Shown here in pieces: positions 3,112 to 64,000 of a stretch of 64,000 nt of DNA (position 1 is its first letter; each line of letters starts with the position of its first letter). This DNA comes from Actinernus sp. WN-2022 (lineage: Eukaryota > Cnidaria > Anthozoa > Actiniaria > Actinernidae). The position numbers were made by a program, and so were the translations under genes. A model generated the notes under the pieces. It did not search any database. It saw only the letters and a list, made by a program, of their open reading frames with translations, and was not told the origin of the DNA. The stretch covers positions 8,454,269 through 8,518,268 of the forward strand of contig JAOWCC010000655.1 in NCBI GenBank assembly GCA_030867875.1. Direction: 5' to 3'.

Positions 3112-3235
3112 TGTTAGGAATGTCGTGTCCAAGTTAGGAGTACCGTGTTCAAGTTAGGAGTGCAGTGTCCACGTTAGGAGTACCGTGTCCAAGTTAGGAG
3201 TGCTGTGCCCAAATTAGGAGTGCCGTGTCCCAAAT
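3112..3235 (+). repeat. 22-bp tandem array, about 5-6 copies
   Basis: Diverged copies of a 22-bp unit with core GTTAGGAGTRCCGTGTCCAA run head to tail with no spacers. The unit is not a multiple of three and has no open frame through it. It lies about 140 bp upstream of the VWD exon acceptor. Confidence 0.8.
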
Positions 3236-3371
3236 GTTCGTTGTGAAAACCGCGCTCAATTAATGGGTCTGACGAACTAGCTAGGCCAAACTGGTTACTG
3301 AGAAAAAGGTAGAAACTTACTTTCAACAGGATTTTTGACACCCTATTGATAAACTCGTGTTTGTATTACAG

Positions 3372-3583
3372 CTGTCGGTCTGGGTGACCCTCACATGATA
3401 ACATTAGATGGCGTTGAATATACCTTTAATGGCTATGGTGAGTACACGATGCTCAACGTCCTGCCCAGCGGATTTACTCTTCAAGGTAGAATGCAGCCAC
3501 TTGTAAAAGACGATGGTACCCAGATAAACGCGACAGTTTTTACCGCGTTTGCTATGAAGGAGAATGGATCCGATACTGTGCAA
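3372..3583 (+). CDS. SUSD2/mucin-4-like membrane protein, exon a (VWD domain start)
   Basis: This is the first exon in the window of a multi-exon gene coding for a SUSD2/MUC4-like cell-surface protein. It encodes GDPHMITLDGVEYTFNGYGE, the hallmark start of a von Willebrand type D domain of the AMOP-VWD-Sushi family, then a beta-rich stretch to SDTVQ. The exon begins after TTGTATTACAG in phase 1 and ends at CAA before gtacac in phase 0, which joins in frame to IQLNGRG at 21769. I place the end there because the open frame reads into a stop at 3599-3601 and the next exon needs phase 0. NIDO and AMOP exons expected upstream are not visible, so the 5' part lies left of the window or was missed. 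Function (adhesion or matrix-like surface protein) is inferred from family only. Confidence 0.85.
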
Positions 3584-4788: not shown

Positions 4789-5325
4789 GTCTGTGCACAG
4801 GGAACCCAAGCTCTGTTTGTGTTTTAAATTATAAGGGTTTGTATGGGATTTTTAACGAGTATTTGGTTGTATTTGTTAAGCCAGAAATACTGAAATAAAA
4901 TCAATGAAAACTTACCTGAAGTCTTTATCTGTTCTTCATTGGGCTCTGTATGCAATTTCAGCGAATTCTGTTGAAATTTTATCCCTCGACCTCTCCAGCT
5001 AAGAAAGAAGGCAAGGGAGGACGCAACCGCCATTTCTCGATGCCAATCACTCGAACATCGCGCTCGAATTTGCATCCAAAATCAATGCCAACCGCAACTA
5101 GACCTCAAATAATGGCACAACAGTATCTATTCCAAGAGCCTCGTGCCGTCTAATTTCAACAATCCCCATTTCTCGAGCCTAAATCGAACACGATTTGAAA
5201 CAAATCCGCCCGTTGGGATCTGTGACTGACACTTGTTGCCAACACATAGCAACGGCAAATCGTCCCAAAGTTCACGGGCTCAGAATGATACATATACGTT
5301 ATTTTGAAAGCCGTCTTCAAGCAAA

Positions 5326-5402
5326 CGGCTCTATGGTACAGTGGTCTAGCGTTCGCGCGTTCGATCCAACGACCCGGAGTTCGAGTCCTACACCGTGCAC
5401 TG
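5326..5402 (+). repeat. tRNA-like segment in left arm of palindrome
   Basis: The sequence contains a box-A-like TGGTACAGTGGTCTAGCG and a box-B-like AGTTCGAGTCC at tRNA-like spacing, followed by an A/T run. The T-stem and anticodon stem do not pair properly (only one or two good pairs in the T-stem), so it is not a functional tRNA; it looks like a tRNA-derived SINE head or tRNA pseudogene trapped in the arm. Confidence 0.55.
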
Positions 5403-6723
5403 TAAAAAAAATTTTTTTTTACTTCTTTTTCTCCTTTCTCAGTTTTATTTAATCTTTTCCTCTATTTTAAACAATTAGAGCCGCCTTCTACCTGGAAAAC
5501 ATTGTTGTCTTTTGGCTCTCAAGCCTCGACCAGGAGCCCATTGCCTCAACTTTAAATAACTTTTCTGGTTAGTTTATTATCACAAGAGCTAGAAGGAAAG
5601 CTCGCTGCGTAGAAGAGAAAAGCTGGGATATCGGTTTCCTTTTATTCTTCGATTCGAGCCTGGTAAGTTTATAAGCAAATTAATGTATCAGTTATTTTTT
5701 TACGGGCTTTGGTTGATTCAAATATCGCAAGTAAAGTACCGTACGTTAATTTATTAAAACAGTTGTGTTCGATATTTTCACAGGACGCTCATGACCTCGA
5801 TTTAGTGCGATGATGAGAAAGATATCATAACGAATTCCCTCGTTACCTCGTAATTACATAAAATCCTGTGAAAGTATCGAACACAGTAGTTTTAATTAAC
5901 GTACATGCGATCATTGAACCCGCGGATTTAAATCACTCGAAAACCCTGTCATCAAAATTTAACCGAAGGCTACTTATAAACTTACCAGGCTCGAATCAAA
6001 GAATAAAAGGTTACAGATAACCTTTTCTTCCCAGCAGGCTTTCCTTCTAGCTCTTGTGGTCTCAACGTCGACAACATGTTCATAAAGTAACCGAACTTTA
6101 AAGTAACCGAACTTTGTTTTGAAAGTTTACAGTAGCATGGGTTTTCCCTAGCTTCGCTAGTTTCTAATTGGTCGGTATACACAATAGATGTCAGTCAGGT
6201 TATTTTGAGCACTGTTACCCAGGCCTTCCCGCGTAGCAAGGTAAAAGTATATTTTCACAGGATTTTATGTAATTACGAGGTAACGAGGGAATTCGTTATG
6301 ATATCTTTCTCATCATCGCACTAAATCGAGGTCATGAGCGTCCTGTGAAAATATCGAACACAACTGTTTTAATAAATTAACGTACGGTACTTTACTTGCG
6401 ATATTTGAATCAACCAAAGCCCGTAAAAAAATAACTGATACATTAATTTGCTTATAAACTTACCAGGCTCGAATCGAAGAATAAAAGGAAACCGATATCC
6501 CAGCTTTTCTCTTCTACGCAGCGAGCTTTCCTTCTAGCTCTTGTGATAATAAACTAACCAGAAAAGTTATTTAAAGTTGAGGCAATGGGCTCCTGGTCGA
6601 GGCTTGAGAGCCAAAAGACAACAATGTTTTCCAGGTAGAAGGCGGCTCTAATTGTTTAAAATAGAGGAAAAGATTAAATAAAACTGAGAAAGGAGAAAAA
6701 GAAGTAAAAAAAAATTTTTTTTA

Positions 6724-6800
6724 CAGTGCACGGTGTAGGACTCGAACTCCGGGTCGTTGGATCGAACGCGCGAACGCTAGACCACTGTACCATAGAGCCG
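6724..6800 (-). repeat. tRNA-like segment in right arm of palindrome
   Basis: Mirror copy of the tRNA-like segment at 5326-5402, carried on the minus strand by the right arm. Same defects in the stems. Confidence 0.55.
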
Positions 6801-7721
6801 TTTGCTTGAAGACGGCTTTCAAAATAACGTATATGTATCATTCTGAGCCCGTGAACTTTGGGACGATTTGCCGTTGCTATGTGTTGGCAACAAGTGTCAG
6901 TCACGGATCCCAACGGGCGGATTTGTTTCAAATCGTGTTCGATTTAGGCTCGAGAAATGGGGATTGTTGAAATTAGACGGCACGAGGCTCTTGGAATAGA
7001 TACTGTTGTGCCATTATTTGAGGTCTAGTTGCGGTTGGCATTGATTTTGGATGCAAATTCGAGCGCGATGTTCGAGTGATTGGCATCGAGAAATGGCGGT
7101 TGCGTCCTCCCTTGCCTTCTTTCTTAGCTGGAGAGGTCGAGGGATAAAATTTCAACAGAATTCGCTGAAATTGCATACAGAGCCCAATGAAGAACAGATA
7201 AAGACTTCAGGTAAGTTTTCATTGATTTTATTTCAGTATTTCTGGCTTAACAAATACAACCAAATACTCGTTAAAAATCCCATACAAACCCTTATAATTT
7301 AAAACACAAACAGAGCTTGGGTTCCCTGTGGTCTGTGGTGATTCAATAGTGATGAGAATTGCGCCCAAAGGCCAAAGTCAAACTGTAAAAAGCTATATTT
7401 TTGCTGGCTACAGGCGATTATTATGTACATGTATAACGATGTCGATGATCGCCAGCTACATGTACTTATGTAATTCTTAAAGTCAGAGTTGTAGCTTATT
7501 GCACAAAATACCGGCTGTTGTTCAGTTGTCCAACAACTAAAAACTTGATAACAGTCCTGTACTAGTGTGTTGAGTTTATACAATTTTGTATTACTTTTAA
7601 CAATTTTAATGACTACATGTACATGTACCCTCGTTTGCAGAATACCCCCTCCATTCAAAATATTAGTTAAAAACCACTAAATTATCCATTTTACATGTAG
7701 TTCAGGGCCTGGTTGTTCAAA

Positions 7722-10563: not shown

Positions 10564-12230
10564 AAAGCTGTATCCACTAAATGCTAGCCAAATTCATTTC
10601 ACACTTTTTAGACTGTGTGCAGGCACGTTACACCACTATTAAAAAAGCTTTAATTTCTCTGACTCAGCTTGCTTAAATACACAGCAACGTTTTATTCTTC
10701 GTCTGATTCACACTTCAAAGCGCTGTTGTTTGACAAATTGATTTTTGACGATAACTGTATAACCAAGGAAAACTAAACGCATTCTGCCTGTATTATACAC
10801 AAGTGTAGTGCATGAGTGCAATGCACTCAAATGCGTGTAGTAAATTTATTTTGTACACGTGCATTACACACGTGTTAATGTTAACATTCATCCAGGCTGT
10901 ACTGTGTCTGAAGACCGTAGCATTTTCAGTGTCTGTTTGGAGAAAATCCTTTTCTGAACTAGTTGTATTATGGTACACAAATTTATTCAGCAGAACTGAA
11001 ATTTAGAAAATGAGATGTGTTGGCAATTTCTTTAAAACTATGAAAGATAAAACAACAACAGTTTTTATTTGTACCAAGAAAGAACTGTTTACAATAATAT
11101 TAAGAATAGATTTAGGTAGTTGAAGCTAACTTAGTACAGGCTATCTAAATAACAGAGCTAATCTAGTAGATAGCACAACATAATTGGATTTATAATAGAT
11201 ACATGTAATTGATAATTTTTATACCGGGGGGGGATTGATGTAATTTAATTAAGAGCTGTCAGATTACAAAACTGTTACAATGTTGCTCTTCGATATCCAT
11301 GTTTAATATCAGTACAGAAAATGTAAAACAAGAACTCTTCATTGCTGTTTAGATACATGTATATTTTTTTGAAATTGTCCCCAAAAATCAAGAACTATCT
11401 GATACCTTAACTTTACATTTCTTGATTTATAACAGGAAAACCAAGAGGATTTAAATCTACACAAACATTACAGTCAACTCAGCGACTCCATCATTGCCCT
11501 TTTCTGCATCTACATTGTACACATGTGCATCACCAATTGCCATGTTTATCAACTACAGCACCACAACCTGCCTTTTCCAATTATTCTCATACAACTGTAC
11601 ATCACCCCTTGTACATGAAGAAATATTCTTTCTGGTTGAGGGATTTCCAGCTTCCATCTCTTGTAAGTAATAACAGTATCAGGCCTCTAAATAAAAAAAG
11701 CCTTAGTGTCACAGGGGTGGTTTCATTAGAAGCTTACAGGGGTCGTGTAAGTCACTGCCGGCTGCTCTTGTAAAATATCATACATTTTAGGTACTTATTG
11801 CTTGAGTGCGAGGACTGGAAAAGAAAATATTTGGGTCAAGGTTGTAACGCATGGACCATTAGTGGAAATACTGTAGACCAATAACAGCAAGTCCATACAG
11901 ATTGATTGAGAGGCAAATATGTTTCTGGATTTTTTAATCGTATGCCCACTTTGAAATGCCAAAACAAGCACAAAAAAAACGGATTTTCTCTTACAAGATG
12001 CACAACACAGAAAAATAATATCAAAACCTATTTAGTTTAAATACATGTTCATACAGACATTGGGTTGATTTTAGGATTTAGTTCCCCTTTAAACACCTGC
12101 ATGGTCAGTGGTGATTGACTAGCACAAAAAAATCAAGTGTCCATGCAGCCAACAAAATTAATGTTAATTGCCAAAAATAATGTTTTAGCCTCATTAGTGA
12201 CCATAATCGGCTACAATCTTAGTCCCTGTA
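10564..12230. other. No gene seen; AT-rich intron
   Basis: Rich in ACATGTA words, with a G run at about 11225-11233. No exon, RNA or repeat with clear ends was recognised. Confidence 0.4.
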
Positions 12231-14428
12231 TTGGTGTTCTGTGATGGTAAGAGTGACAGCATTTATGCAAAATCTTTTGGCTGTGAGTTCATTGGTGTTC
12301 TGTAACAGAAAGAGTGGCAGCATTTATGCAAGATCTTTTAGCTGTGAGTTCATTGGTGTTCTGTAACAGAAAGAGTGGCAGCATTTATGCAAGATCTTTT
12401 AGCTGTGAGTTCATTGGTGTTCTGTAACAGAAAGAGTGGCAGCATTTATGCAAGATCTTTTAGCTGTGAGTTCATTGGTGTTCTGTAACAGAAAGAGTGG
12501 CAGCATTTATGCAAGATCTTTTGGCTGTGAGTTCATTGGTGTTCTGTAACAGAAAGAGTGGCAGCATTTATGCAAGATCTTTTGGCTGTGAGTTCATTGG
12601 TGTTCTGTAACAGAAAGAGTGGCAGCATTTATGCAAGATCTTTTGGCTGTGCGTTCATTGGTGTTCTGTAACGGAAAGAGTGGCAGCATTTATGCAAGAT
12701 CTTTTGGCTGTGAGTTCATTGGTGTTCTGTAACAGAAAGAGTGGCAGCATTTATGCAAGATCTTTTAGCTGTGAGTTCATTGGTGTTCTGTAACAGAAAG
12801 AGTGGCAGCATTTATGCAAGATCTTTTAGCTGTGAGTTCATTGGTGTTCTGTAACAGAAAGAGTGGCAGCATTTATGCAAGATCTTTTAGCTGTGAGTTC
12901 ATTGGTGTTCTGTAACAGAAAGAGTGGCAGCATTTATGCAAGATCTTTTAGCTGTGAGTTCATTGGTGTTCTGTAACAGAAAGAGTGGCAGCATTTATGC
13001 AAGATCTTTTAGCTGTGAGTTCATTGGTGTTCTGTAACAGAAAGAGTGGCAGCATTTATGCAAGATCTTTTGGCTGTGAGTTCATTGGTGTTCTGTAACA
13101 GAAAGAGTGGCAGCATTTATGCAAGATCTTTTGACTGTGCGTTCATTGGTGTTCTGTAACAGAAAGAGTGGCAGCATTTATGCAAGATCTTTTAGCTGTG
13201 AGTTCATTGGTGTTCTGTAACAGAAAGAGTGGCAGCATTTATGCAAGATCTTTTGGCTGTGAGTTCATTGGTGTTCTGTAACAGAAAGAGTGGCAGCATT
13301 TATGCAAGATCTTTTAGCTGTGAGTTCATTGGTGTTCTGTAACAGAAAGAGTGGCAGCATTTATGCAAGATCTTTTGGCTGTGCGTTCATTGGTGTTCTG
13401 TAACAGAAAGAGTGGCAGCATTTATGCAAGATCTTTTAGCTGTGAGTTCATTGGTGTTCTGTAACAGAAAGAGTGGCAGCATTTATGCAAGATCTTTTGG
13501 CTGTGAGTTCATTGGTGTTCTGTAACAGAAAGAGTGGCAGCATTTATGCAAGATCTTTTAGCTGTGAGTTCATTGGTGTTCTGTAACAGAAAGAGTGGCA
13601 GCATTTATGCAAGATCTTTTGGCTGTGAGTTCATTGGTGTTCTGTAACAGAAAGAGTGGCAGCATTTATGCAAGATCTTTTGGCTGTGCGTTCATTGGTG
13701 TTCTGTAACAGAAAGAGTGGCAGCATTTATGCAAGATCTTTTAGCTGTGCGTTCATTCGTGTTCTGTAACAGAAAGAGTGGCAGCATTTATGCAAGATCT
13801 TTTAGCTGTGAGTTCATTGGTGTTCTGTAACAGAAAGAGTGGCAGCATTTATGCAAGATCTTTTGGCTGTGAGTTCATTGGTGTTCTGTAACAGAAAGAG
13901 TGGCAGCATTTATGCAAGATCTTTTGGCTGTGCGTTCATTGGTGTTCTGTAACAGAAAGAGTGGCAGCATTTATGCAAGATCTTTTAGCTGTGAGTTCAT
14001 TGGTGTTCTGTAACGGAAAGAGTGGCAGCATTTATGCAAGATCTTTTGGCTGTGAGTTCATTGGTGTTCTGTAACAGAAAGAGTGGCAGCATTTATGCAA
14101 GATCTTTTAGCTGTGAGTTCATTGGTGTTCTGTAACAGAAAGAGTGGCAGCATTTATGCAAGATCTTTTAGCTGTGAGTTCATTGGTGTTCTGTAACAGA
14201 AAGAGTGGCAGCATTTATGCAAGATCTTTTAGCTGTGAGTTCATTGGTGTTCTGTAACAGAAAGAGTGGCAGCATTTATGCAAGATCTTTTAGCTGTGAG
14301 TTCATTGGTGTTCTGTAACAGAAAGAGTGGCAGCATTTATGCAAGATCTTTTAGCTGTGAGTTCATTGGTGTTCTGTAACAGAAAGAGTGGCAGTATTTA
14401 TGCAAGATCTTTTAGCTGTGAGTTCATT
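12231..14428 (+). repeat. 61-bp minisatellite, 36 copies
   Basis: A head-to-tail array with period exactly 61 bp. The unit starts TTGGTGTTCTGTAACAGAAA and ends ATCTTTTAGCTGTGAGTTCA. First and last units are the most divergent; inner units differ at a few positions only: TTTTAGC or TTTTGGC, TGTGAG or TGTGCG, and AACAG or AACGG. These variants are interspersed along the array, suggesting block duplication. 61 is not a multiple of three and no frame stays open. A lone degenerate unit lies at 14757-14825. Confidence 0.97.
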
Positions 14429-54049: not shown

Positions 54050-55677
54050 CGGTCGTACTTATACCGCTTGACAACAATCAGATCTTGTGAACCAGCACAA
54101 TACACACTCATTACTGTTCATACCAGCAGAAAATACATTTCAAGCGTGTTTGCCATTTACTGATTATTGGTAATTCTAGAGCGAGGATGCGTTGTATTTT
54201 GACTGTATATCCGGGGGAGGGAGACTCCACTGTGGGTCCTGTGGGGTTGTGCTGCACGGGTTTTACAGTACGACTACTGTAACCGGGGTCACTTAGACAA
54301 CGAGAACTAAGCACATTGCAAAACGAAAACAAAGCATTCCAAACCATCTACGCGATTCTGATTCATTTAAAAGACTTCAGAGCTAGTTCACGAAATTTGC
54401 CTTTTATCGGATCGAAGCTCAAGCACTAAGTTGAAATGCTATTGTCTTCTACTCGACAATGAACATGATGTGTGTGATCTCGTATGTATTACTATGTAAA
54501 ATCATGCCCTATTCCATCGATGAATCAGCCGTTAGGTGCGTCTGTTCGAGATATTTTGAAACCTAAATGACAGTTTTCCCTACCCTTTTCTATTCTTCAA
54601 CTCGTGAAATCCCTACCCTTTTATATAGCTATAGCCTAAAAAGGTACCCCTTTCGGGCGGAGCCTCCCCGTATAGTCCATTAAAGGGAATTCCCCCCCCC
54701 CCCCCAAAGCATATATACAAAATATAGTAACGTTTTAAAGTGAACGCCAACGTAAGAAAGATAATCAATCCGTTTTTCGTTCGGTGTGAACGGAACTCTG
54801 TACTCATCATATTTTTCGAAAATCTGGTTGTGAGAAACAAAAAAAAGAGTAAACACCAAATTTTGGCAGAAAACATTTCTCTACATCCCGTCGTCACTGC
54901 TGTCGCCGTCCTGGTTGTTTAAATTCCCTAACATGGGAGTATCCCGCGTAGAATGTTGAGCTAATATTGCTTGTAAGTAACTAACTACTATATGTGGCTA
55001 CTACACAAGTTTTCCAGGAATATTTACATTCTATTCTGTTGCTTTCTCAATTTGAAAACAGACCTGAAAGAGCCATTTCTATATGTCGGTTTTAGAGCCA
55101 CGTACAACTGTTCAAATCCAGTGAATTACTAGACTGGAGCAGTCCCTCCTTTTCCCTCCATTGATAGTGAGTCTCACCATCAGCTCTAGCCTGTATCGTT
55201 CATTCATGCGTTCAGTGTTCGCAAGAAGGTACATTGTCTGTCTCGCAGTCTAGTATAAATTACGAGCTAGAATGGCATTGAACATGAATTGTGCTGGTAA
55301 CCACGTGGTATCGTCCGAATATTGTCATTTTGACGGCAATGATGATCGCGCTGCAACATTTTGTAACCATCACAACTGGCGTGTACCATTCAGTGCTCCG
55401 CCGAATGCCGGTTAAAGCTTGCAATATTGGCATGAAATTCCTAAAATGAAGAAAACCTGACGTTCTTTTGGAATCTGCTGAGCGAAGTACTGCGTAGTAT
55501 AAGGGAAGTGTGAATGTGAAAGTTAGTTTATACCATGCAGTTTTATTTGCGATGAAGCTGGTGGAAACCTGGCATCCTTGCAAAATATCTCAGTAAAAAT
55601 TTGCAAGGATCAACAGACGAAGTAGAAGGACCGGATCTCATCGGAGGGATCTAATCAGCAAAATTGTAATAAACGAC
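54050..55677. other. No gene seen; dispersed repeats
   Basis: 54735-54925 resembles 46375-46590. 55181-55240 is an inverted copy of 44519-44575. A C run lies at 54690-54703. Confidence 0.45.
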
Positions 55678-55838
55678 GCAAGGCTGATTTGTACGGTTGG
55701 GGAATGATTATATTTGATCAATATTTCGGTTGTCCATCAGTGTGTACAAGGCACTTGTAAACCCAGATGAAAGTTGGCCGTGCCAGCCAAAATATTGGTC
55801 AAATATAATTATTCCCAAACCGTACAAATCAGCCTTGC
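55678..55838. mobile_element. Foldback MITE, about 161 bp
   Basis: GCAAGGCTGATTTGTACGGT, GGGGAATGATTATATTTGAT and CAATATTT pair with AATATTGGTCAAATATAATT, ATTCCC and ACCGTACAAATCAGCCTTGC. Confidence 0.8.
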
Positions 55839-55987
55839 ATCCGGTTCTATTATTATTCATCCTTGCAAGCAGTTGTTTTTACTGGAGGAAGAAGTCGGAA
55901 GCATCCCCATTATAGGGGATATACTTTAGGCTATAAAAATACCTCGCCTCTAAAAACACGTATTAGTACAGCATGGTTAGAAGAAGG

Positions 55988-56220
55988 AGTAGTATAGTCG
56001 GCGTCAGTTAAATACCACTTTTTCTTGTACAACAAAACTCAAAAGGTTGTGAATGTTATGGACGCCTTGTTTTCTTGCACAAGGGGCGTCATAAAGTGAA
56101 TTCAGAAATCCACTTCATAACGCCCCTTGTGCAAGAAAAAAGGCGTCCATAACATTCACAACCTTTTGAGTTTTGTTGCACAAGAAAAAGTTGTATTTAA
56201 CTGACGCCGACTATACTACT
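55988..56220. repeat. 233-bp near-perfect foldback at left side of Polinton
   Basis: Left arm begins AGTAGTATAGTCGGCGTCAG at 55988 and the right arm ends with its inverse at 56220. Arms of about 110 bp pair almost perfectly through AACAAAACTCAAAAGGTTGT, GAATGTTATGGACGCCTTG and GCACAAGGGGCGTCATAA around a short AT-rich centre. It could be an independent MITE or the Polinton terminus (Polinton ends commonly start with AG and short tandem words). No clear target duplication: flanks are AAGAAGG and ATGGGG. Confidence 0.8.
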
Positions 56221-56236
56221 ATGGGGTAACTAAGGG

Positions 56237-56472
56237 TCATTCAAAGTGTCACTAGACATTCTTGTACATAAAATCCAATTTGATAATCCTATTAGAGATA
56301 TGATTACATATAGTTATATCGACATCGATTGCTTGTACGTAAAATCCAACTTGATAATCCTATTAGAGATATAATTACATATAGTTATATCGCTGCAACA
56401 GCCTTACACCTAAAAATCCAAACTCGAGTACCTGTTAAAGCTATCGTAATATATAGTTATATCGAAGGGAGA
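56237..56472 (+). promoter_or_regulatory. Three 71-72 bp direct repeats upstream of PolB
   Basis: The core TATAGTTATATCG occurs at about 56309-56321, 56380-56392 and 56452-56464. The first two units are nearly identical (TACRTAAAATCCAAYTTGAT, AATCCTATTAGAGATAT) and the third is diverged. Each core has a TATA-like word, and the last is nine bases upstream of the PolB ATG at 56473. Likely part of the terminal repeat with promoter function; inference only. Confidence 0.6.
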
Positions 56473-59400
56473 ATGGTGAGACCACGTAGTGAACCACTTC
56501 CACGGAGTCTAGCTCGAGAGGCAGGTGCCATTCTAGAGGAGAGAGATGGAATGCTCGAGGGGATGGAGATAGGTCGCCGTACTATCCGATGGCGCTTCTT
56601 CCAAGGTGTGGCAGGAGACTTGACTCCTAGGATCATGGAAAAGTTAGTTGCAAAGGTAACCACCAGCTTCTACCTACGCTATAGCTACACCTATCGCATT
56701 CGCAATGTCAATGACGGACGCGTGATTCTATTCTCCAAGACTGTCCCAGGTTCTCCATGGGTGAACATCCTAGAAGATGCAGAAGAGTGGATCAATAGCA
56801 AGGAGACAGCTCGATTGAATCCCGACAACATCACTCGACCAAATACCCAATGGGCCTTCGTTCGTTGGATCTACGTAGATGTCAAAGTCGTGATCGATCG
56901 TCAGCTTTTGTTGGGAACAGGTCCACTGCCCCAATGGCTTCGCCTTAAGAAAGGAATGCTTGCCCTTGATCGATATGGCGACAACCTATGTCTTTGGCGC
57001 TGCCTTGCCATGCATGAAGGAGCAAGAGTAGATAGGTGTTGCGTCAAAGCTCGAAAACTTGCCCAGAACTTCTATCGCCTGACAGCACCCACACAAGACG
57101 TTCCCAGAACTTCCTTAGACCGGCTGGAGGAAGTCGAGTTACACTTTGGAATCGGTATTCGGGTGTATGAACCCACGGAGGACGGCGCTTGGCATCTGAC
57201 GCGACATGCAGCTCACTACAAGCATACGATGACGATTGGGATATACGACGGACATGCCTTCTACATCAAGAACATCAACAAGCTAGGGCACATCTACGTA
57301 TGTAACGATTGTAAGCAACGGTTCACGAAAGCCTCAGACCTTCACCGTCATGCAGATCGTTGCAGGCGTGGAGAAACAAAGATTGTTTGCCCTGGAAAAG
57401 TAATCACAGTACCCCAGTCGGCATACGAAAAAGCCTTCTGGCCAGAGAGCACAGCCAGCAAAGTCGCTTTATGCTGGTTGGAACGCGAAACCAAAAGGAT
57501 TGGACAACACATTCATCATGCGGCTTGTGGGCATGGTGGAGAGCATTGGATCGAAGGAGCACCTGTCGACGGCTACGAACCTCTTTCGAAAACCATCTTC
57601 CAATTTCATGGATGCTATTTCCATGGCTGCCCGAAATGCTTCCCTAGGGAAAGGAGGCTCTATCTCAAGACCTGTGAAAGAACGGCAAAGCTACAAGGAG
57701 CTGGTTATACAGTAGTGGAAGCTTGGGGTTGCTCTACAAAGAAGAAAAACAAACCGGTCCCCACACCAACACAAACTGTCTACCCACACTTCATAGTTTA
57801 CGATTTCGAAGCCTATCTCGATACAACGAAAGGAAGACAACCAACAGACCACCTGACCATCGAAAACGTCCATGTCCCAATATCAGTATCAATTGCCGAC
57901 ACATACAATCGAAAGTCAACCCACCTCTGTCGACGCAATCCAAAAGAACTCATCGAAGCCTTTGTCGAAGAACTCCAGCGAAGAGCGAAAGCGATCCAAG
58001 AAGTCATTGCAGAACAGTTCTGCCCCAAGACACCTGAATTCTCTTTTGACACCCTACCAAAGAAACAACAAGCGAAGATCGACGAATGGATCCGCCAAGT
58101 TCCAGTAGTGGGATTCAACTCTGGCAGGTACGATCTTAATCTGATCAGGGAGCACTTCGTAGGAATCATTGCCGACACCTGTTCAAAGATCCTGGTAGCA
58201 AAGAAAGCCAATTCCACTATGTTCCTATTGACCCCAGATTTCCGTTTCCTTGATGTGATCAACTACCTTGGACCTGGAACTTCTTATGAACGTTGGATCA
58301 AGGCATATGGATGCGAATCGCAAAAGAGTTTCTTCCCATATGAGTGGTTCGATTCTCCAGACAAGTTGGATCACATTGGATTACCAGACTATCCAGAGTG
58401 GGGTTCGAAGTTGAAAAGAGAACATCTACTATCTATGTCAGAGTTCGAAGACTGTGAGTGCACCTTTCTCGACAAAGGAATGGAAACCTTTGCAGACTGG
58501 CTACGATACTACAACGACCTAGATGTAGTTCCATTCCTAGAGGCACTCGAAAAGATGCGAGATTTCTATCACGAGAAAGGAGTAGACATGCTGAAAGACG
58601 CAGTGTCCATTCCAGGAGTCTCACTACAGTTCCTGCTTCGAGGTAGTGTAGAAAGGGGAGCTGAGATGTACGCTCCAAGTAAGGAAGCCTACCGCATGCT
58701 GAAAGACGCTGTCGTGGGAGGTCCAAGCATAGTGTTCACCAGACTCCACGAATCAGGAGTGACTAAGATTCGTAGTCATCAGGGAGGAACTAAGATTTGT
58801 CGTAAGATTCTTGGATACGATGCCAACGCCCTATATCTTTCTACCATGGAATTCGAAATGCCTTGTGGAAAAGAAAAGGTTGTGCACTATGACGATCCAG
58901 GTCCAGCCACCGAAGGATTCGTTGAATGTCTACTTGGTGGAACGTGGTTTGGATATGCAGAAGTAGACATCGAGATACCAAAGAAATTGTGGAAGGAATT
59001 TGAGGAGATGCCACCCTTCTTCTACAACAAGAAAATCCCCAAAGAAGCAATCCCTCCAGAAATGTTGGCCTACCTCACAAAGACAGGTAGAAAGCTCAGC
59101 GAGGAAAAGAAGCTAGTTGGGAGTCTCTCTGGAAAGAAGTTGCTACTCTATGCTCCTCTTCTACTTTGGTATGTAGATCATGGCGCAGTGATCACTGCTG
59201 TCTACCGCACGATAGATTACGAACCCAAAGAAATCTTCGGATGGTTCGTGGACCAAGTCACTGAGGCACGTCGTATGGGAGATGAAGATAAAGGTGAGGC
59301 TTTGCTGGCAGATGTGTTCAAGCTGCTAGGAAACAGCGCCTATGGAAAGTTGCTCGAAGACTTGGGACGCCAAACAAAGGTCACCTATACAAAAGATGAG

Positions 59401-60063
59401 AAGGTTGTGGACAAAGCATTGCGAAGTGTTTGGTTCGAAGACCTGGAAGAGATTGGTGATGCATATGAACTCGAGAGCCGAAAGGACCAGATCCAAATCA
59501 AACGCCCTTTCCAAGTAGGTATCGCTGTGTACCAGCTCGCAAAGCTGCGTATGCTTGAGTTCTACTATGACTTCATCGACAAGTACATTGATCGCAATGA
59601 TTTCGAATATATACAGATGGACACAGACAGTGCCTACATTGCCATCTCGGGAAATAGCCTCGATGAGGTTGTAAGACCGGAACTTCGAGAGGATTTCGAA
59701 GCCGAAAGGAAGGAATGGCTAGCTTGGGACAAGTGGAGCAGTCGTACCCCAGGACTCTTCAAACTCGAATTCGAAGGACATCGCGCCATTGCCCTATGCT
59801 CGAAAGCCTACTACGTCGATACAGGTGGCAGCAAGAAGTATTCCGCTAAAGGTATGTCTAGACGGCACAACGACATTTCGTGGGAACGATTCAAAGCAGC
59901 CCTCCAGGGTAGTATCGACATGGCGGAAAACCGAGGCTTCCGACTATCGCCAGAAGGCATAGCAACCTACGAACAACGGAAGCTTGGGTTATCGGCTTAC
60001 TACGACAAAAGACGCGTTCTTCCCGATGGAATCCACACCGAGCCAATAGAGTACGCTGTTTAG
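56473..60063 (+). CDS. Polinton protein-primed family B DNA polymerase (pPolB)
   Basis: Replicates the element from a protein primer. 1196 codons from ATG 56473; upstream in-frame codons consist of the 71-bp repeats and start with TTG, so this ATG is preferred. Residues about 165-265: OTU-like cysteine-protease pattern (D170-N-L-C173 ... D-G-H261-A-F). C277, C280, H293, C297: zinc finger. 377-389: QFHGCYFHGCPKC, an endonuclease-like segment usual in Polinton polymerases. Exonuclease: ExoI YDFEA (D444, E446), ExoII GFNSGRYD (N549, D554), ExoIII YYNDLD (679-684). Polymerase: motif A GYDANALYL (D783), motif B KLLGNSAYG (K950), motif C MDTDS (D1050, D1052), KAY (K1111). All catalytic residues are present and no intron is needed. 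The stop TAG overlaps the integrase stop by 4 bp. Confidence 0.95.
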   Translation: MVRPRSEPLPRSLAREAGAILEERDGMLEGMEIGRRTIRWRFFQGVAGDLTPRIMEKLVAKVTTSFYLRYSYTYRIRNVNDGRVILFSKTVPGSPWVNILEDAEEWINSKETARLNPDNITRPNTQWAFVRWIYVDVKVVIDRQLLLGTGPLPQWLRLKKGMLALDRYGDNLCLWRCLAMHEGARVDRCCVKARKLAQNFYRLTAPTQDVPRTSLDRLEEVELHFGIGIRVYEPTEDGAWHLTRHAAHYKHTMTIGIYDGHAFYIKNINKLGHIYVCNDCKQRFTKASDLHRHADRCRRGETKIVCPGKVITVPQSAYEKAFWPESTASKVALCWLERETKRIGQHIHHAACGHGGEHWIEGAPVDGYEPLSKTIFQFHGCYFHGCPKCFPRERRLYLKTCERTAKLQGAGYTVVEAWGCSTKKKNKPVPTPTQTVYPHFIVYDFEAYLDTTKGRQPTDHLTIENVHVPISVSIADTYNRKSTHLCRRNPKELIEAFVEELQRRAKAIQEVIAEQFCPKTPEFSFDTLPKKQQAKIDEWIRQVPVVGFNSGRYDLNLIREHFVGIIADTCSKILVAKKANSTMFLLTPDFRFLDVINYLGPGTSYERWIKAYGCESQKSFFPYEWFDSPDKLDHIGLPDYPEWGSKLKREHLLSMSEFEDCECTFLDKGMETFADWLRYYNDLDVVPFLEALEKMRDFYHEKGVDMLKDAVSIPGVSLQFLLRGSVERGAEMYAPSKEAYRMLKDAVVGGPSIVFTRLHESGVTKIRSHQGGTKICRKILGYDANALYLSTMEFEMPCGKEKVVHYDDPGPATEGFVECLLGGTWFGYAEVDIEIPKKLWKEFEEMPPFFYNKKIPKEAIPPEMLAYLTKTGRKLSEEKKLVGSLSGKKLLLYAPLLLWYVDHGAVITAVYRTIDYEPKEIFGWFVDQVTEARRMGDEDKGEALLADVFKLLGNSAYGKLLEDLGRQTKVTYTKDEKVVDKALRSVWFEDLEEIGDAYELESRKDQIQIKRPFQVGIAVYQLAKLRMLEFYYDFIDKYIDRNDFEYIQMDTDSAYIAISGNSLDEVVRPELREDFEAERKEWLAWDKWSSRTPGLFKLEFEGHRAIALCSKAYYVDTGGSKKYSAKGMSRRHNDISWERFKAALQGSIDMAENRGFRLSPEGIATYEQRKLGLSAYYDKRRVLPDGIHTEPIEYAV

Positions 60064-61103
60064 CGTCTAGGTACAAACAGAATTCCTTTTGGTGGTAGTT
60101 CTGTATCCCTAGGAACGACTTGTAGCTCTTCACGAACGAATCCACGTTTGGGTGCATCCTTCTCCTTCGCAAGGTAGTAAAGCACAGGCTGTCCCGAAGA
60201 TACTACACTTCGCGAAATGGTGTATATCTGCAAACTCCACACAGGATCAGTAGCTCTACGTTTTTCACCTCCTTCCAATTCTCCTGGTGCATAAAGATAT
60301 CGAACTAGAACGTCGAATGGTAGACGCTCTTCTCTCAATCCAACCGTGCGCGAATATGTAGGAGTCTTCAGATCTACTTGTTGCGCCACTACAGAATTCG
60401 AAGGCTCTTTACCAGTCAACCGAGTCACCTCACTGTTCATGGCTTTGATAACCATTGGTAAACGAATTACCCATTCTCTACTACGCTCATCTGATCCTTC
60501 CGAAGTAAGCACCATCTCTTGTGCATACTGATACCCAAATAATCTCTCAGCTAGAGTCCTATTTGCTCTTTCAACAAAACTTTGCGCTCTATGATTACCA
60601 GCCTCACCTCGTTGAACTTTCGTACCATGTAGTTCTAGCGTTTCAGACATACGTCCCATGAATTCTCTACCAGGATCTACTTGCAAAGTCTTTGGCCATT
60701 CTAGTGGACTACGTTTATAGATTCGTTCGAATGCCGCAGCAACTTCACCACTATCTTTAGATGCCAAAGGTTCGGCTTCTTTGTATCGAGAAGCTACATC
60801 GATTACCACTAATGCATACTTATATAGTTTCCTTCCACGTCCAGGACGATCGTGTGGTAGAAATATCAAATCAGCTTGGTGGACTTCATTTGGTTTCGAT
60901 ACAGTCCAATGCGGTCGTGGAATGTGTTTTGGTGGTGGTAGATATATTTGCCACATGGATTGCTTTTCCAACCAACTCCTAGCTACATCTTCTGATGCTT
61001 TCGCTGCTACCGATAGCTTGCCAATTGCAGTGTGACCTTTCCAATAGCCCATAGGCCCATAGAAGATATTCGCAAGTTTAGAATCCATCATACATCTATA
61101 CAT
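60060..61103 (-). CDS. Polinton retroviral-type integrase (D,D35E)
   Basis: Inserts the element into host DNA. 347 codons from ATG at 61103; a TTG at 61115 also opens the frame but is less likely. Domains: N-terminal helical part with YWKGHTAIGKL and WLEKQSMWQIY (a reduced zinc-binding region); rve catalytic core with HQADLIFL (D78), ALVVIDVASR, LQVDPGREF (D143) and SFVERANRTL (E178), spacing D-34-E, exactly the D,D35E signature; C-terminal beta-rich region ending with WSLQIYTISR and GFVREELQVVP, as in Polinton c-integrases and Ty3/retroviral relatives. Convergent with the polymerase, stop codons overlapping by 4 bp. Complete and uninterrupted. Similar genes exist in Ginger transposons, but the neighbours settle the assignment. 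Confidence 0.95.
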   Translation of the reverse strand: MYRCMMDSKLANIFYGPMGYWKGHTAIGKLSVAAKASEDVARSWLEKQSMWQIYLPPPKHIPRPHWTVSKPNEVHQADLIFLPHDRPGRGRKLYKYALVVIDVASRYKEAEPLASKDSGEVAAAFERIYKRSPLEWPKTLQVDPGREFMGRMSETLELHGTKVQRGEAGNHRAQSFVERANRTLAERLFGYQYAQEMVLTSEGSDERSREWVIRLPMVIKAMNSEVTRLTGKEPSNSVVAQQVDLKTPTYSRTVGLREERLPFDVLVRYLYAPGELEGGEKRRATDPVWSLQIYTISRSVVSSGQPVLYYLAKEKDAPKRGFVREELQVVPRDTELPPKGILFVPRR

Positions 61104-61118
61104 TCTAACCTTCAACAG

Positions 61119-61190
61119 ATGAAAAAAAAAGGAAGAATAAAGAAAGTCGTTGCGTGACCCTCTTCATTCTTCCTTTTTTTTTTTTTTTTA
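61119..61190. other. Hairpin: A-run/T-run stem upstream of integrase
   Basis: AAAAAAAAAGGAAGAAT at 61121-61137 pairs with ATTCTTCCTTTTTTTTTT at 61164-61181, a stem of at least 17 bp with a 26-base loop. It is 16 bp upstream of the integrase ATG and downstream of the leftward small-gene block. Could act as a transcript terminator or processing signal between the two units; the T run is 18 long. Confidence 0.7.
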
Positions 61191-61400
61191 GTAGTAGCTT
61201 AGTAGTAGCTTAAGTAGCTTACTAGTAGCTTAGGTAACTTACTAGTAGCTTACTAGTAGCTTAGGGCAACTCACCAGGAGCTTAGGGTAACTTACTAGTA
61301 GCTTAGGTAACTTACTAGTAGCTTACTAGTAGCTTAGGGCAACTCACCAGTAGCTTAGGGTAACTTACTAGTAGCTTAGGTAACTTACTAGTAGCTAGTA
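61189..61400. repeat. Minisatellite of AGTAGCTTACT-type units, 73-bp higher-order period
   Basis: Short units built from AGTAGCTTAGG, TAACTTACT and CAACTCACCAG repeat from 61189 to 61400; the longer pattern AGGTAACTTACTAGTAGCTT to GGGTAACTTACTAGTAGCTT recurs at 73 bp. It lies between the 3' end of the 142-codon gene and the hairpin, inside the element. The words AGTAGTAGTAT resemble the foldback terminus AGTAGTATAG at 55988. Confidence 0.85.
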
Positions 61401-61407
61401 GTAGTAT

Positions 61408-61836
61408 CTATATCCATTTACTAATAGCGTATCCAACACCTAGCATTCCACCACCAACGTAGAGCAACTCACCAGTCTTCTGATTGTTTGAGGGTTTGTA
61501 GTAGTCAGATAAGCGGGGTTCTTTCATCTCTTTGAGCCGTTTTAGCTCTTTACGTAACTTATCGGATCGCACTAAGGCTTCGTTGGTATCTCTTTGATCG
61601 TTGTGTGCTTTGCGTTCAAGACCTTCCTGCTCTTGTGCATAGTCATATAAGCTTTGACGTTTGATTCTATACGCTTTCATTTCACGTTCTAGTTTTTCGG
61701 TGGCCCTATCGTGTCTCTCTCGTTCTGCATCTACATCACCATCTTTTCCAAGCATTCTAGCTAGTATGCCACCACCAGTAAATGCCGTTGCATTCAATAT
61801 AGCCCCGAGGAGGGCCATTCCAATTGCTGCCGCCAT
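61408..61836 (-). CDS. Polinton small protein 1: coiled coil between two hydrophobic segments
   Basis: 142 codons from ATG 61836. Residues 1-28 are hydrophobic and Ala/Gly-rich (MALLGAILNATAFTGGGILA), residues 35-105 are highly charged and heptad-like (EREMKAYRIKRQ, LRKELKRLKEMKE), and residues 122-142 are hydrophobic again (YVGGGMLGVGYAI). Predicted as a membrane-associated coiled-coil protein. I do not recognise a family. Position next to capsid and packaging genes suggests a virion or membrane role, but that is inference. Last gene of the leftward block, 28 bp from its neighbour's stop. Confidence 0.75.
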   Translation of the reverse strand: MAAAIGMALLGAILNATAFTGGGILARMLGKDGDVDAERERHDRATEKLEREMKAYRIKRQSLYDYAQEQEGLERKAHNDQRDTNEALVRSDKLRKELKRLKEMKEPRLSDYYKPSNNQKTGELLYVGGGMLGVGYAISKWI

Positions 61837-61864
61837 TATGGTATGATCTTTTGTTTCTCAAGAT

Positions 61865-62089
61865 TTAGGTTTGGGCTTTTCTTTCTTTCTCAAGTTGTTT
61901 CTCAAGATATTCCTTTGCGTATAAGCTACCAAGTATCACGGCAGTCCACTTTGCGTAATTCGCTAGGGAAGAAGAAGGATCGCTAAGCATAGATTCCTTG
62001 GTAGTCTTTTTTACGATCCACCCAATACCAGCAGCGAGTCCAACGATTTTGACTGCATCGGTTGCCGTCTTCGTCAATTCCTTCTCCAT
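61865..62089 (-). CDS. Polinton small protein 2: membrane protein
   Basis: 74 codons from ATG 62089, which is preceded within 10 bases by the TATA-like TAGTATATATCTAG. Residues 12-26 (AVKIVGLAAGIGWIV) and 47-60 (KWTAVILGSLYAKE) are hydrophobic, separated by a polar loop, with a charged tail EKQLEKERKAQT. Family not recognised. Such short hydrophobic proteins are common in Polinton-like genomes; role unknown. Confidence 0.7.
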   Translation of the reverse strand: MEKELTKTATDAVKIVGLAAGIGWIVKKTTKESMLSDPSSSLANYAKWTAVILGSLYAKEYLEKQLEKERKAQT

Positions 62090-62126
62090 CTAGATATATA
62101 CTACTATGATCTCGAGTCTTTAAGTG

Positions 62127-62474
62127 TTACTCCATGTCTAGTGCCGTTGGCTTTGCCGGAGCTGCAGGTTGTGTCGTGCTAACGGTGGCAACACGCTTAT
62201 TACCATCTACATACTTCTTGTACGCAAAGTATGTGCCAAACAATGTAGCGCCAGTACCGATGACTGCGAGGATAGTCAGGTTTTCGATCCGACCTTTCTC
62301 TACGTCGACTTCTTTACATGATTCGCTTTCGCGCATCAACTCTCTCTTTTGAGCTTCTTTAGCGAGTTTGTTGCTTAACGCTAGTGCTTTTCCAGCTGCG
62401 ACGCGCTTTGGGTTTTTTATCTTAGTTGGTGCAGTCGTCGGAGGATTCGCAGTTATCTGGTCCACTTCTTCCAT
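62127..62474 (-). CDS. Polinton small protein 3: single-TM protein
   Basis: 115 codons from ATG 62474 (an earlier ATG at 62510 adds 12 residues; the later one starts MEEVDQ and is preceded by a TATA-like TACTATACC). Layout: Pro/Thr-rich start, basic stretch KNPKRVAAGKALALSNKLAK, then a hydrophobic helix LTILAVIGTGATLFGTYFAY at about 70-90, and a Pro/Ala tail. Overlaps the upstream gene by 53 bp in another frame. Family not recognised. Confidence 0.7.
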   Translation of the reverse strand: MEEVDQITANPPTTAPTKIKNPKRVAAGKALALSNKLAKEAQKRELMRESESCKEVDVEKGRIENLTILAVIGTGATLFGTYFAYKKYVDGNKRVATVSTTQPAAPAKPTALDME

Positions 62475-62970
62475 CTTGATTCGGTATAGTAGGTATATGT
62501 GGAGGTTCAACAGTTGTACCAGGAATGACTACGTGACCAGATATGTGGAATAGGACGCTAGCTAGAGCTACAAGGCGACCTGCTTTGAGCGATAGTAGAC
62601 CAGTCGCAGCACTGATTTCGTTGCGGACTAGAGGGTCTTCTTGTAGGTCCTTGATCAGGGCTTCTTGAGAATCTATTGGTACTAGGTAGGCAACTAGGCG
62701 GGTAGCTAGACGCGTCACACCGTCGACTAAGCCTTTCGTTACTTGCTGAGCTAGGACGGCCTGATACCTCCTATACAACTTGTTTACTTCTTTCTCAGGA
62801 AGTCTAGAGATGTCTCCTAGGGAGAAGTTCTTACCTAAGTATTCTTTTGTTACGCCTGTTGCGGCTAAGATCGAAAGTGATTCGCGATTGTCTGACGTAA
62901 CGTCTAGATCGGTTGGTGGTGGACCTGTTACGTCCTCACCGAATATCTCGAGTATTTCCTTATCAGTCAT
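62422..62970 (-). CDS. Polinton protein 4: unrecognised 182-residue protein
   Basis: 182 codons from ATG 62970. Acidic N-terminus (MTDKEILEIFGEDVTGPPPT), a middle with basic helix PEKEVNKLYRRYQAVLAQQV, then AYLVPIDSQEALIKDLQEDP and a moderately hydrophobic GLLSLKAGRLVALASVLFHI at about 140-160, ending in a polar Cys-containing tail (CESSDDC). The start overlaps the ATPase stop by 8 bp (ATGACTGA), implying coupled expression. Could be a minor virion component; no family is recognised, and it does not show an obvious penton jelly roll by eye. Confidence 0.75.
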   Translation of the reverse strand: MTDKEILEIFGEDVTGPPPTDLDVTSDNRESLSILAATGVTKEYLGKNFSLGDISRLPEKEVNKLYRRYQAVLAQQVTKGLVDGVTRLATRLVAYLVPIDSQEALIKDLQEDPLVRNEISAATGLLSLKAGRLVALASVLFHISGHVVIPGTTVEPPHIPTIPNQDGRSGPDNCESSDDCTN

Positions 62971-63583
62971 AATATGTTATAGATGCTGGGAGCTCTAACA
63001 CTACCTCGAAAGGATGGCGGAGACAGAAGCACATGCGAGCAAACTTATGGGATCCAAGTATCATTCGTAACTCTTTACATTCTTGAGAGCCTCCATAATC
63101 CTCAAATATCCTTTTACCATCTACGGCCGATGCTGTATGGAACGCTACTACGATAGCTACGTTCTCACGGAAGGGTTTACATATGCTCGTTAGTTGTTGG
63201 GACAGCACCCAAACGGAAATCCCTATATGTCGTGCAGAAAAGGCTAAGTCCACTAGCTTGTCAGTTCGTTTCTTTACGTCCTTCGATGCGGCGCAATCGT
63301 CAAGAATCAATAGAGTATTGGTACCTGACCAAAATGTTGCGCAAATACTCAAAGTAGCATCGATGGCATCCTGCGGTGGTGATATGACGAAGAAACGAGG
63401 ATCTCGATTTGCAAATCCACGATAAGTTTTGTTGTGGGCATACGTAGGACAAATCAGTACTATGTAATCGAACTTACCACGAAATGCTCCACGAAGTTGT
63501 TCTATGAGAAACGCAGTCTTCCCACAATTCGTTGGACCGACTATGAGTGCGTTGAACGGCACGTGCTCTACGAGAGAATCCAT
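62963..63583 (-). CDS. Polinton A32/FtsK-HerA-like genome-packaging ATPase
   Basis: 206 codons from ATG 63583. Walker A is VGPTNCGKTAF (residues 15-25), Walker B LLILDDCA (91-98), and the sensor strand VWVLSQQ at 124-130 with the usual terminal Gln. The arrangement fits the FtsK/HerA superfamily packaging ATPases of poxvirus A32, adintovirus and Polinton type, which pump DNA into capsids. The short length, about 200-230 residues, is normal for this branch. Start codon overlaps the upstream capsid-like gene's TGA by one base (TGATG), and its stop overlaps the next gene by 8 bp. No defect seen. Confidence 0.93.
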   Translation of the reverse strand: MDSLVEHVPFNALIVGPTNCGKTAFLIEQLRGAFRGKFDYIVLICPTYAHNKTYRGFANRDPRFFVISPPQDAIDATLSICATFWSGTNTLLILDDCAASKDVKKRTDKLVDLAFSARHIGISVWVLSQQLTSICKPFRENVAIVVAFHTASAVDGKRIFEDYGGSQECKELRMILGSHKFARMCFCLRHPFEVVLELPASITYYD

Positions 63584-64000
63584 CAGTATAATATACTTTG
63601 CAGAGATCTGTTCAATATCGTGACCTGAGCATCCGCAAGGACATAGATGTGCATTTTCACATTTCCACTTCCCTTTGCAGTTCTATGTATGCGAATGTCG
63701 ATGTCCTTTCCACTGCCGGTTTGTGCCAATCCATCACCATGAACGGTGGAATCCTTTGCTGTGCGACAATCGATTAGAATAGAGAATCTATTTTCAAAGA
63801 ACTTCTTTGGAGTCATAGAAGTATTGGGTGTACCAAACCAACCTTTTGCAGCCTCCCAGAAATCTAGGGGAAGCATGCCGCTTGGAAAGAGTCTGTTGGG
63901 AATCCCATTGACATCTACTTCTACCTTCAAGATATCTGGATTCGAGAATGCTTCACTATCTCGCGTGCCAATGGTAGGTGGATCTATGAATAGTAGAAGT
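63583..64000 (-). CDS. Probable Polinton major capsid protein, C-terminal part (cut by window edge)
   Basis: Open from the right edge of the window to TGA at 63583-63585, at least 138 codons; no start in view. Readable segments: IPNRLFPSGMLPLDFWEAAK, NRFSILIDCRTAKDSTVHGD, then VKMHIYVLADAQVTILNRSL and a terminal Tyr. The final pattern (hydrophobic strand, I-Y-V, I-x-N-R) is like the end of double-jelly-roll capsid proteins in Polintons, including F54H12.2-like proteins. Position just before the packaging ATPase agrees. The alternative is a minor capsid protein. Confidence 0.55.
   Translation of the reverse strand, partial: LLLFIDPPTIGTRDSEAFSNPDILKVEVDVNGIPNRLFPSGMLPLDFWEAAKGWFGTPNTSMTPKKFFENRFSILIDCRTAKDSTVHGDGLAQTGSGKDIDIRIHRTAKGSGNVKMHIYVLADAQVTILNRSLQSILY

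What the first reader, a model, noticed from the sequence alone, without database searches (positions are those of the whole stretch)
55988..64000. Apparently intact Polinton/Maverick with all visible genes open
Polymerase, integrase, ATPase, capsid-like and four small genes all lack stops or frameshifts, and every catalytic motif is present. Most Polintons in animal genomes are broken, so an open copy implies recent mobility or an endogenous virus still capable of forming particles. It is in sharp contrast with the dead LINEs and Gypsy around it.
Basis: partly seen in the sequence, partly recalled or inferred. Interest (0 to 1): 0.9.

Follow-up and report, generated by a model that had tools for sequence, protein, structure and literature searches.

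The report
Intact, multiplying Polinton with variable gene
A complete virus-like jumping element sits at the end of this stretch of a large, probably animal, genome; it has many near-identical copies elsewhere with readable genes, and one of its genes differs sharply from copy to copy, as a surface protein of a living virus might.

Summary
The window's last 8 kb is the left half of a 15,642-bp Polinton/Maverick (55988 to L009:7629) with (AGT)2/(ACT)2 ends, terminal inverted repeats and a 5-bp target duplication (GAAGG); open frames cover 91%. It is one of many copies: all 150 scored ATPase hits and all 99 scored hits to the putative capsid gene are stop-free at 97-100% identity (best-scoring hits only). 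Of 16 full-length copies sampled by perfect ends, 15 have exact 5-bp duplications and 12 have all seven genes tested in their end pieces open. pN/pS against the window copy is 0.00-0.22 in polymerase, integrase, ATPase and putative capsid genes. A 221-aa gene is hypervariable: its best other copy is 87% identical where the scored ATPase and capsid hits stay at 97% or more, and its alleles are exchanged as cassettes between otherwise similar elements. Both ends are hairpin palindromes (233 and 133 bp). Not shown: particles, transcripts, the fold of the putative capsid protein, an adenain-type protease. The duplication is 5 bp, not 6. Verdict: an intact, recently mobile Polinton family, most likely propagating through capsids; a new variant of a known kind.

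The parts
55983..55987 (.). left copy of the 5-bp target duplication GAAGG; right copy is L009:7630-7634
55988..56220 (.). left terminal palindrome (233 bp), tips AGTAGT and ACTACT; the outer tip is the element's end
   Evidence: right-end counterpart L009:7497-7629 (133 bp)
56163..56317 (.). part of the terminal inverted repeat shared with the right end (L009:7554-7400, 96% identical)
56261..56464 (.). 71-bp repeats, about 2.8 copies, between the palindrome and polB
56473..60063 (+). family-B DNA polymerase (protein-primed type by its relatives), 1196 aa
   Evidence: open in 16 of 16 sampled copies
60060..61103 (-). rve-family integrase, 347 aa from the first ATG; D82/D147/E182 in the 351-aa frame
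   Evidence: open in 15 of 16 sampled copies
61188..61404 (.). short tandem repeats between integrase and X1
61408..61836 (-). X1, 142 aa, unknown
   Evidence: only weak matches
61865..62089 (-). X2, 74 aa, unknown
   Evidence: only weak matches
62127..62474 (-). X3, 115 aa from the first ATG, unknown
   Evidence: no match
62422..62970 (-). X4, 182 aa, unknown; 3 relatives (40-51% identical) on 11.7-34.7 kb contigs
   Evidence: pN/pS 0.17-0.22 in 5 of 7 comparisons
62963..63583 (-). A32-type genome-packaging ATPase, 206 aa
63583..64000 (-). C-terminal third of the putative major capsid protein; continues to L009:854; whole gene is L006:2118-3389, 423 aa

Best explanation
An intact Polinton/Maverick of 15,642 bp, one of a young, high-copy family in this genome. 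Likely life cycle: the linear DNA is copied by its own PolB, packaged by the ATPase into a capsid of the 423-aa protein, and inserted by the integrase with a 5-bp stagger. Shown: complete ends, TIRs, target duplication, open genes, many near-identical copies, purifying selection on polymerase, integrase, ATPase and putative capsid genes, and cassette-like exchange of the 221-aa gene. Inferred: that capsids form and carry the element between cells or hosts, and that the 221-aa protein with part of the neighbouring 566-aa protein is the exposed, host-contacting part of the particle, kept diverse by recombination between co-infecting or co-resident elements.
For: Ends, TIR, target duplication. 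Open frames in the window copy. Copies: 150 of 150 scored ATPase hits (4587 first-look candidates) and 99 of 99 scored putative-capsid hits (5035 candidates) stop-free. Sixteen full-length copies sampled by perfect ends: PolB open 16/16, INT 15/16, p203 16/16, TFIIB-like 15/16, p145 15/16, F-box/ankyrin 13/16; p221 open 16/16. pN/pS against the window copy: PolB 0.08-0.22 and INT 0.00-0.07 in 16 copies; putative capsid 0.08-0.16 and ATPase 0.00-0.18 in 7 copies, X4 0.17-0.22 in 5 of 7. Hypervariability and exchange.
Against: No particle, RNA, read or episome data. The putative capsid protein has no match above cut-off in Pfam and none in PHROGs or the PDB; weak hits to a bacterial receptor domain I take for chance. 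No protease recognised. The sampled copies were chosen by perfect ends or best protein score, so the open fraction of the family is unknown. Some sampled copies carry damage: one INT stop, one TFIIB-like stop, one p145 not full length, three F-box/ankyrin not open. For one copy, absence of stops in PolB alone has probability 0.25 under random mutation with 30 changes.
Confidence: 0.75

Rival explanations
1. A purely intracellular transposon: copies spread within the germline genome without leaving the cell, and the packaging genes serve some step of transposition.
For: Many copies in one genome and local clusters, e.g. seven p221 hits in C398:38.26-38.42 Mb; no virion evidence.
Against: The putative capsid and ATPase genes are conserved about as strongly as polymerase and integrase, and one gene is hypervariable with cassette exchange, which an intracellular life does not readily explain.
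Confidence: 0.2
2. p221 is not a host-contact protein but a self/non-self or superinfection-exclusion factor, or a minor capsid protein that merely drifts fast and is reshuffled among Polinton families. (This rival concerns the function of p221 and can hold together with the main explanation of the element.)
For: p221 types share conserved ends and a divergent core, as expected for allele swapping whatever the function; core dN/dS between types is 0.24-0.80, not above 1.
Against: A second variable zone lies in the neighbouring, divergently transcribed gene and is exchanged independently, which fits a two-part exposed structure; not decisive.
Confidence: 0.35
3. Assembly or duplication artefact: one copy multiplied by haplotype duplication, collapse or segmental duplication.
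For: Some hits lie in clusters or on short contigs.
Against: Sampled copies have different flanks and 15 of 16 have their own 5-bp duplication; their PolB genes differ by 0-54 of 3591 bases.
Confidence: 0.03
4. Host-domesticated element kept for antiviral defence, as proposed for polinton-like viruses and virophages of protists.
For: Precedent in cryptophytes and Cafeteria (PMC12220804, PMC10945749: abstract starts and passages seen).
Against: Selection is shared by many dispersed copies with their own target duplications, not by one fixed locus; integrase and ends are intact.
Confidence: 0.05

Closest known systems
Polintons/Mavericks (polintoviruses), including 'intact' vertebrate Mavericks (PMC8097293: section 7 and passages seen; PMC4028283: passages seen)
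   Same: PolB, rve integrase, A32/FtsK-type ATPase, putative capsid gene, TIRs with (AGT)2/(ACT)2 ends, short target duplication, about 15-20 kb, purifying selection on core genes.
   Different: 5-bp instead of 6-bp target duplication; no recognised adenain protease; TIRs that contain hairpin palindromes; hypervariable 221-aa gene; F-box/ankyrin and TFIIB-like genes; at least 99-150 open copies of single core genes in one genome, against at most 38 intact elements per genome in the vertebrate survey (not the same criterion).
Polinton-type PolB proteins of the coral Oculina patagonica (five named rows among the 120 listed)
   Same: PolB 57-61% identical over 88-97% of the query.
   Different: Only proteins were seen; ends, capsid genes and integrity of those copies were not examined.
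Endogenous mavirus-like virophages of Cafeteria (PMC10945749, passages seen)
   Same: Integrated, multi-copy elements with hypervariable regions.
   Different: There the variable regions are the primase/helicase, accessory genes and a 3'-terminal FNIP-repeat gene; no sequence comparison was made.
Polinton-like viruses of cryptophytes (PMC12220804, passages seen)
   Same: Lineage-specific expansion in host genomes, TIRs, 5-6 bp duplications, variable gene content.
   Different: Protist hosts and large fibre proteins; no sequence comparison was made.

Membership tests
Polinton/Maverick | family-B (protein-primed type) DNA polymerase | tested here: met
   PF03175 E=3.9e-11; co-linear with 13 relatives. 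Protein priming itself not testable.
Polinton/Maverick | retroviral-type rve integrase with D,D,E | tested here: met
   PF00665 E=1.8e-10; D82, D147, E182
Polinton/Maverick | FtsK/A32-type packaging ATPase | tested here: met
   PF04665 E=2.4e-11
Polinton/Maverick | terminal inverted repeats with the (AGT)2/(ACT)2 end motif | tested here: met
   motif from PMC8097293 section 7
Polinton/Maverick | short target duplication of 5-6 bp | tested here: met
   5 bp in the window copy and 15 of 16 sampled copies; the 5-6 bp range is from PMC12220804
Polinton/Maverick | double jelly-roll major capsid protein and single jelly-roll penton | tested here: inconclusive
   423-aa open, conserved protein beside the ATPase but no match above cut-off in Pfam and none in PHROGs or PDB; fold prediction never started (server busy)
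Polinton/Maverick | adenain-type cysteine protease (identified in 74% of Polintons, PMC4028283) | tested here: inconclusive
   no match in Pfam or PHROGs among eight right-hand proteins; a divergent one cannot be excluded
'Intact vertebrate Maverick' as defined in PMC8097293 | eight conserved genes, TIRs and a 6-bp duplication | tested here: not met
   5-bp duplication; protease and some core genes not recognised
Adintovirus | gene content and phylogenetic place among adintoviruses | not tested
   no adintovirus genome was compared; 5 protein-based scans of IMG/VR gave no confirmed relative

The most novel reading that the evidence does not exclude
A living, particle-forming Polinton lineage of an animal whose host-contact apparatus is hypervariable: p221 and part of the adjacent 566-aa protein circulate as exchangeable alleles among a hundred or more resident copies with open genes, so that the host genome stores a library of surface types of one virus, and homologous recombination at the conserved gene ends swaps them.
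Probability: 0.35. Interest if true: 0.85.

Novelty: new variant of a known kind. Interest (0 to 1): 0.66.

Why it matters
Whether Polintons of animals still make particles is an old open question. A genome with this many open, near-identical copies, capsid-type genes under selection and a hypervariable candidate surface gene is a good place to test it: particles, transcripts and insertion differences between individuals should be findable if the reading is right. The variable gene gives a specific handle on what Polinton particles might touch. The hairpin ends bear on how such linear genomes start replication or integrate.

Tried and rejected
The palindrome as a separate small element inserted beside the Polinton: rejected. 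It has no target duplication of its own (AGAAGG against ATGGGG); all 40 fetched copies have the element's inner flank on one side (38 ATGGGG-type, 2 AGGGG-type) and a varied outer flank on the other; the right end of the window copy carries one too.

The 4% difference between compared parts of the two TIRs of the window copy as an age: rejected. By my estimate such an age would bring about a dozen stop codons over 14 kb of coding DNA, and none is seen; 14 of 16 sampled pairs have identical 267-bp ends and two differ by one base (these were selected for perfect 233-bp palindromes).

Relatives in IMG/VR by protein and by TIR pattern, and in prokaryote contigs: none confirmed. Putative-capsid fragment against the protein database: 69 candidates, none significant.

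A profile of seven p221 sequences gave weak matches (best E=0.0046; four rows, one molecule) to the light chain of a clostridial neurotoxin in the PDB. No HExxH zinc motif is visible in the p221 alignment; I take it for chance and did not pursue it. Weak hits of the putative capsid protein to an intimin-receptor domain (E=0.0081 and 0.045, below cut-off; PDB E=0.47) I also take for chance.

The 566-aa gene across the genome, PolB counts across the genome, and fold predictions for p221 and the putative capsid protein: asked repeatedly, never answered.

Full report
What was claimed and checked. One search confirms open frames for PolB (56473-60063, +), integrase (60060-61115, -), four small genes (between 61408 and 62970, -), ATPase (62963-63583, -) and the C-terminal 138 aa of another protein running off the window. 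Pfam supports PolB, rve integrase and the A32-type ATPase. PolB is co-linear with 13 aligned database relatives at 55-60% identity, with invariant residues including DTDS. Its search gave 1727 significant proteins, 120 listed; the named ones among them are five proteins of the coral Oculina patagonica, 57-61% identical. The integrase has D82, D147 and E182 with 34 residues between the last two. In window 1-55900 there are nine stop-to-stop frames of 150 aa or more, and only one has a mobile-element domain at E 0.01 or better, a 155-aa reverse transcriptase piece.

The whole element. The window is C1398:8454269-8518268 of a 1.39-Gb assembly in 1772 contigs. The 8 kb to the right (L009) holds the rest. 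A matching end lies at L009:7629, so the element is 15,642 bp. Its ends read AGTAGT...ACTACT, the commonest end motif of vertebrate Mavericks (PMC8097293, section 7 read). GAAGG flanks both ends. Right-hand genes: the 423-aa putative capsid protein (L006:2118-3389 -); a protein scanned as 361 aa (L009:862-1947 +; the nearest ATG in frame is at 853); a 566-aa protein (1944-3644 -); the 221-aa p221 (3686-4351 +); p203 (4371-4982 +); a 330-aa protein with a weak TFIIB-repeat match (4986-5978 -, E=0.0045, below Pfam's cut-off); a 145-aa protein (6092-6529 -); and an F-box plus ankyrin protein (6707-7384 - from its ATG; Ank_2 E=3.4e-16, F-box E=1.2e-5). Coding frames as listed cover 14,195 of 15,642 bases. 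No adenain-type protease or capsid family was recognised in Pfam or PHROGs, and the putative capsid protein has no PDB match by sequence at E 1 or better. Calling it the major capsid protein therefore rests on its place beside the ATPase, its length and its conservation.

Hairpin ends. The first 233 bp form a near-perfect palindrome with AGTAGT at one tip and ACTACT at the other; the right end of the window copy has a 133-bp version. Folded as single-stranded DNA, 214 of 233 and 122 of 133 bases pair. A genome search with the 233-bp palindrome scored 40 of 1285 candidates, all 100% identical. All 40 were fetched and all lie at element ends: one side has the constant inner flank, the other a different host flank. 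Thirty-two of the 40 form 16 inverted pairs 15.56-15.81 kb apart (coordinates). So the palindrome is a fixed part of the terminal repeat in these copies. Two paper searches that could have shown such ends described before (20 of 104 listed, 10 of 141 listed) gave no such title or abstract start; that is weak evidence of novelty.

Integration. Of the 16 pairs, 15 have an exact 5-bp direct repeat next to the ends, none has 6 bp; the window copy agrees. In vertebrate Mavericks 6 bp was the criterion (PMC8097293, passages); 5-6 bp is given for polinton-like viruses (PMC12220804, passages). In 17 left flanks no base exceeds 11 of 17 at any of 20 positions, so there is no strong target preference.

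Copies and their state. ATPase: 150 of 150 scored hits, of 4587 candidates, 97-100% identical, no stops. Putative capsid: 99 of 99 scored, of 5035 candidates, full length, 98-100%, no stops. These are the best-scoring hits including the window's own copy; they are lower bounds on open copies and say nothing about the open fraction. In the 16 end-matched copies (chosen for perfect ends, hence likely young), the end pieces show PolB open in 16, integrase in 15, p203 in 16, TFIIB-like in 15, p145 in 15, F-box/ankyrin in 13 and p221 in 16; all seven are open in 12 of 16 (copies 2, 7, 9 and 10 each have at least one that is not). PolB differs between the 16 copies by 0-54 of 3591 bases, several pairs by 0. 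For the 30 substitutions that typically separate the window's PolB from the others, random mutation would give 1.3 stops per copy, with a 0.25 chance of none in a single copy; none was seen in 16 copies, which are related to each other and so not independent.

Selection. Against the window copy, pN/pS is 0.08-0.22 for PolB, 0.00-0.07 for integrase, 0.03-0.23 for p203 and 0.14-0.28 for p145 (16 copies each); 0.08-0.16 for the putative capsid gene (7 copies), 0.00-0.18 for ATPase (7; these loci were chosen by ATPase score, so biased) and 0.17-0.22 for X4 (5 of 7; one was identical, one had an in-frame gap and was not computed). F-box/ankyrin (0.31-0.74) and TFIIB-like (0.54-0.86) are looser, on few changes. 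The capsid-type genes were thus selected for during the divergence of these copies. In cyprinid Mavericks the same argument was used for propagation through particles (PMC8097293, passages).

The variable gene. No p221 of the 16 copies aligns over its full length by blastn with the window's (0 of 16), while the adjacent 300-base blocks are 92-98% identical where aligned, apart from a second variable zone in the 566-aa gene. All 16 have an open p221 of 221-239 aa. With the window they fall into at least five types with conserved ends and a divergent core; six sequences of four other types are 51-55% identical to the window's in protein. Genome-wide the best other p221 is 87% identical and the lowest of the 150 scored, of 4803 candidates, is 77%; 145 of 150 have no stop. 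Between types synonymous divergence is 0.33-0.55 over the gene and core dN/dS 0.24-0.80, against synonymous divergence of roughly 3-11% in the two neighbouring genes p203 and TFIIB-like (derived from the counts): old alleles, not fresh point changes. They move as cassettes (the window and 8 of the 16 copies compared): copies 7 and 1 are 100% identical (rounded) in the two 566-gene segments compared but 74% in p221; the window copy, 8 and 12 are 98% alike in the second variable zone but 67-69% in p221; 0, 8 and 15 share p221 at 96-97% but differ in that zone, 82-95%. This is the pattern of a surface protein exchanged by recombination, but an exclusion factor or a drifting capsid part would look similar. 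In vertebrate Mavericks one gene, pw, showed raised rates on host-switch branches (PMC8097293, passages), and virophages have hypervariable regions in other genes (PMC10945749, passages). One search for hypervariability or receptor binding with Polintons/Mavericks (20 of 68 listed) showed no paper that by title or abstract start describes this.

How it most likely works. Inferred from the parts and from the known biology of the family (recalled): PolB copies the linear DNA, probably primed by a protein at the hairpin-bearing ends; the ATPase packs it into capsids; the integrase inserts it with a 5-bp stagger; the F-box/ankyrin protein may redirect host protein degradation and the TFIIB-like protein may steer transcription. 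Only the ends, the target duplication, the open genes, the selection and the exchange are shown.

Host. Not identified. The named PolB relatives seen are from a stony coral, so a cnidarian is likely but untested.

Limits. No reads, RNA or particle data; the structure tool never accepted a job; genome-wide data cover only top-scoring hits.

Noticed in passing
L009:6707-7384 (-): F-box plus ankyrin gene at the right end of the element, a combination recalled from poxviruses; open in 13 of 16 sampled copies.
   Followed up: partly
L009:4986-5978 (-): 330-aa protein with N-terminal CxxC pairs (zinc-ribbon-like, by eye) and a weak TFIIB-repeat match, with raised pN/pS of 0.54-0.86 between copies.
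   Followed up: partly
L009:2501-2800, inside the 566-aa gene: Second variable zone, 81-82% identical between its two main types, exchanged independently of p221.
   Followed up: partly
G000:C398:38.26-38.42 Mb and C1706:26.98-27.35 Mb: Clusters of p221 hits (7 and 5) tens of kb apart, possibly tandem or nested copies.
   Followed up: no
61122-61182 and L009:6012-6080: Similar A-rich/T-rich hairpins around GGAAGAAT at two places in the element, possibly transcription ends.
   Followed up: no
55675-55841: A second inverted repeat (58-bp arms, 90%) just outside the left end of the element.
   Followed up: no
12230-14428: 61-bp tandem array, 36 copies, 98% matches.
   Followed up: no
PolB and X4 relatives in the protein database: Several lie on short contigs, e.g. 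9.9-18.1 kb for PolB and 11.7 and 14.1 kb for X4, about the size of a Polinton genome; not fetched.
   Followed up: no
56473-60063: The N-terminal part of PolB has a DNLC...GHAF pattern reminiscent (recalled) of OTU-type cysteine proteases, then a C2H2 zinc finger below Pfam's cut-off; it could stand in for the missing protease, untested.
   Followed up: no
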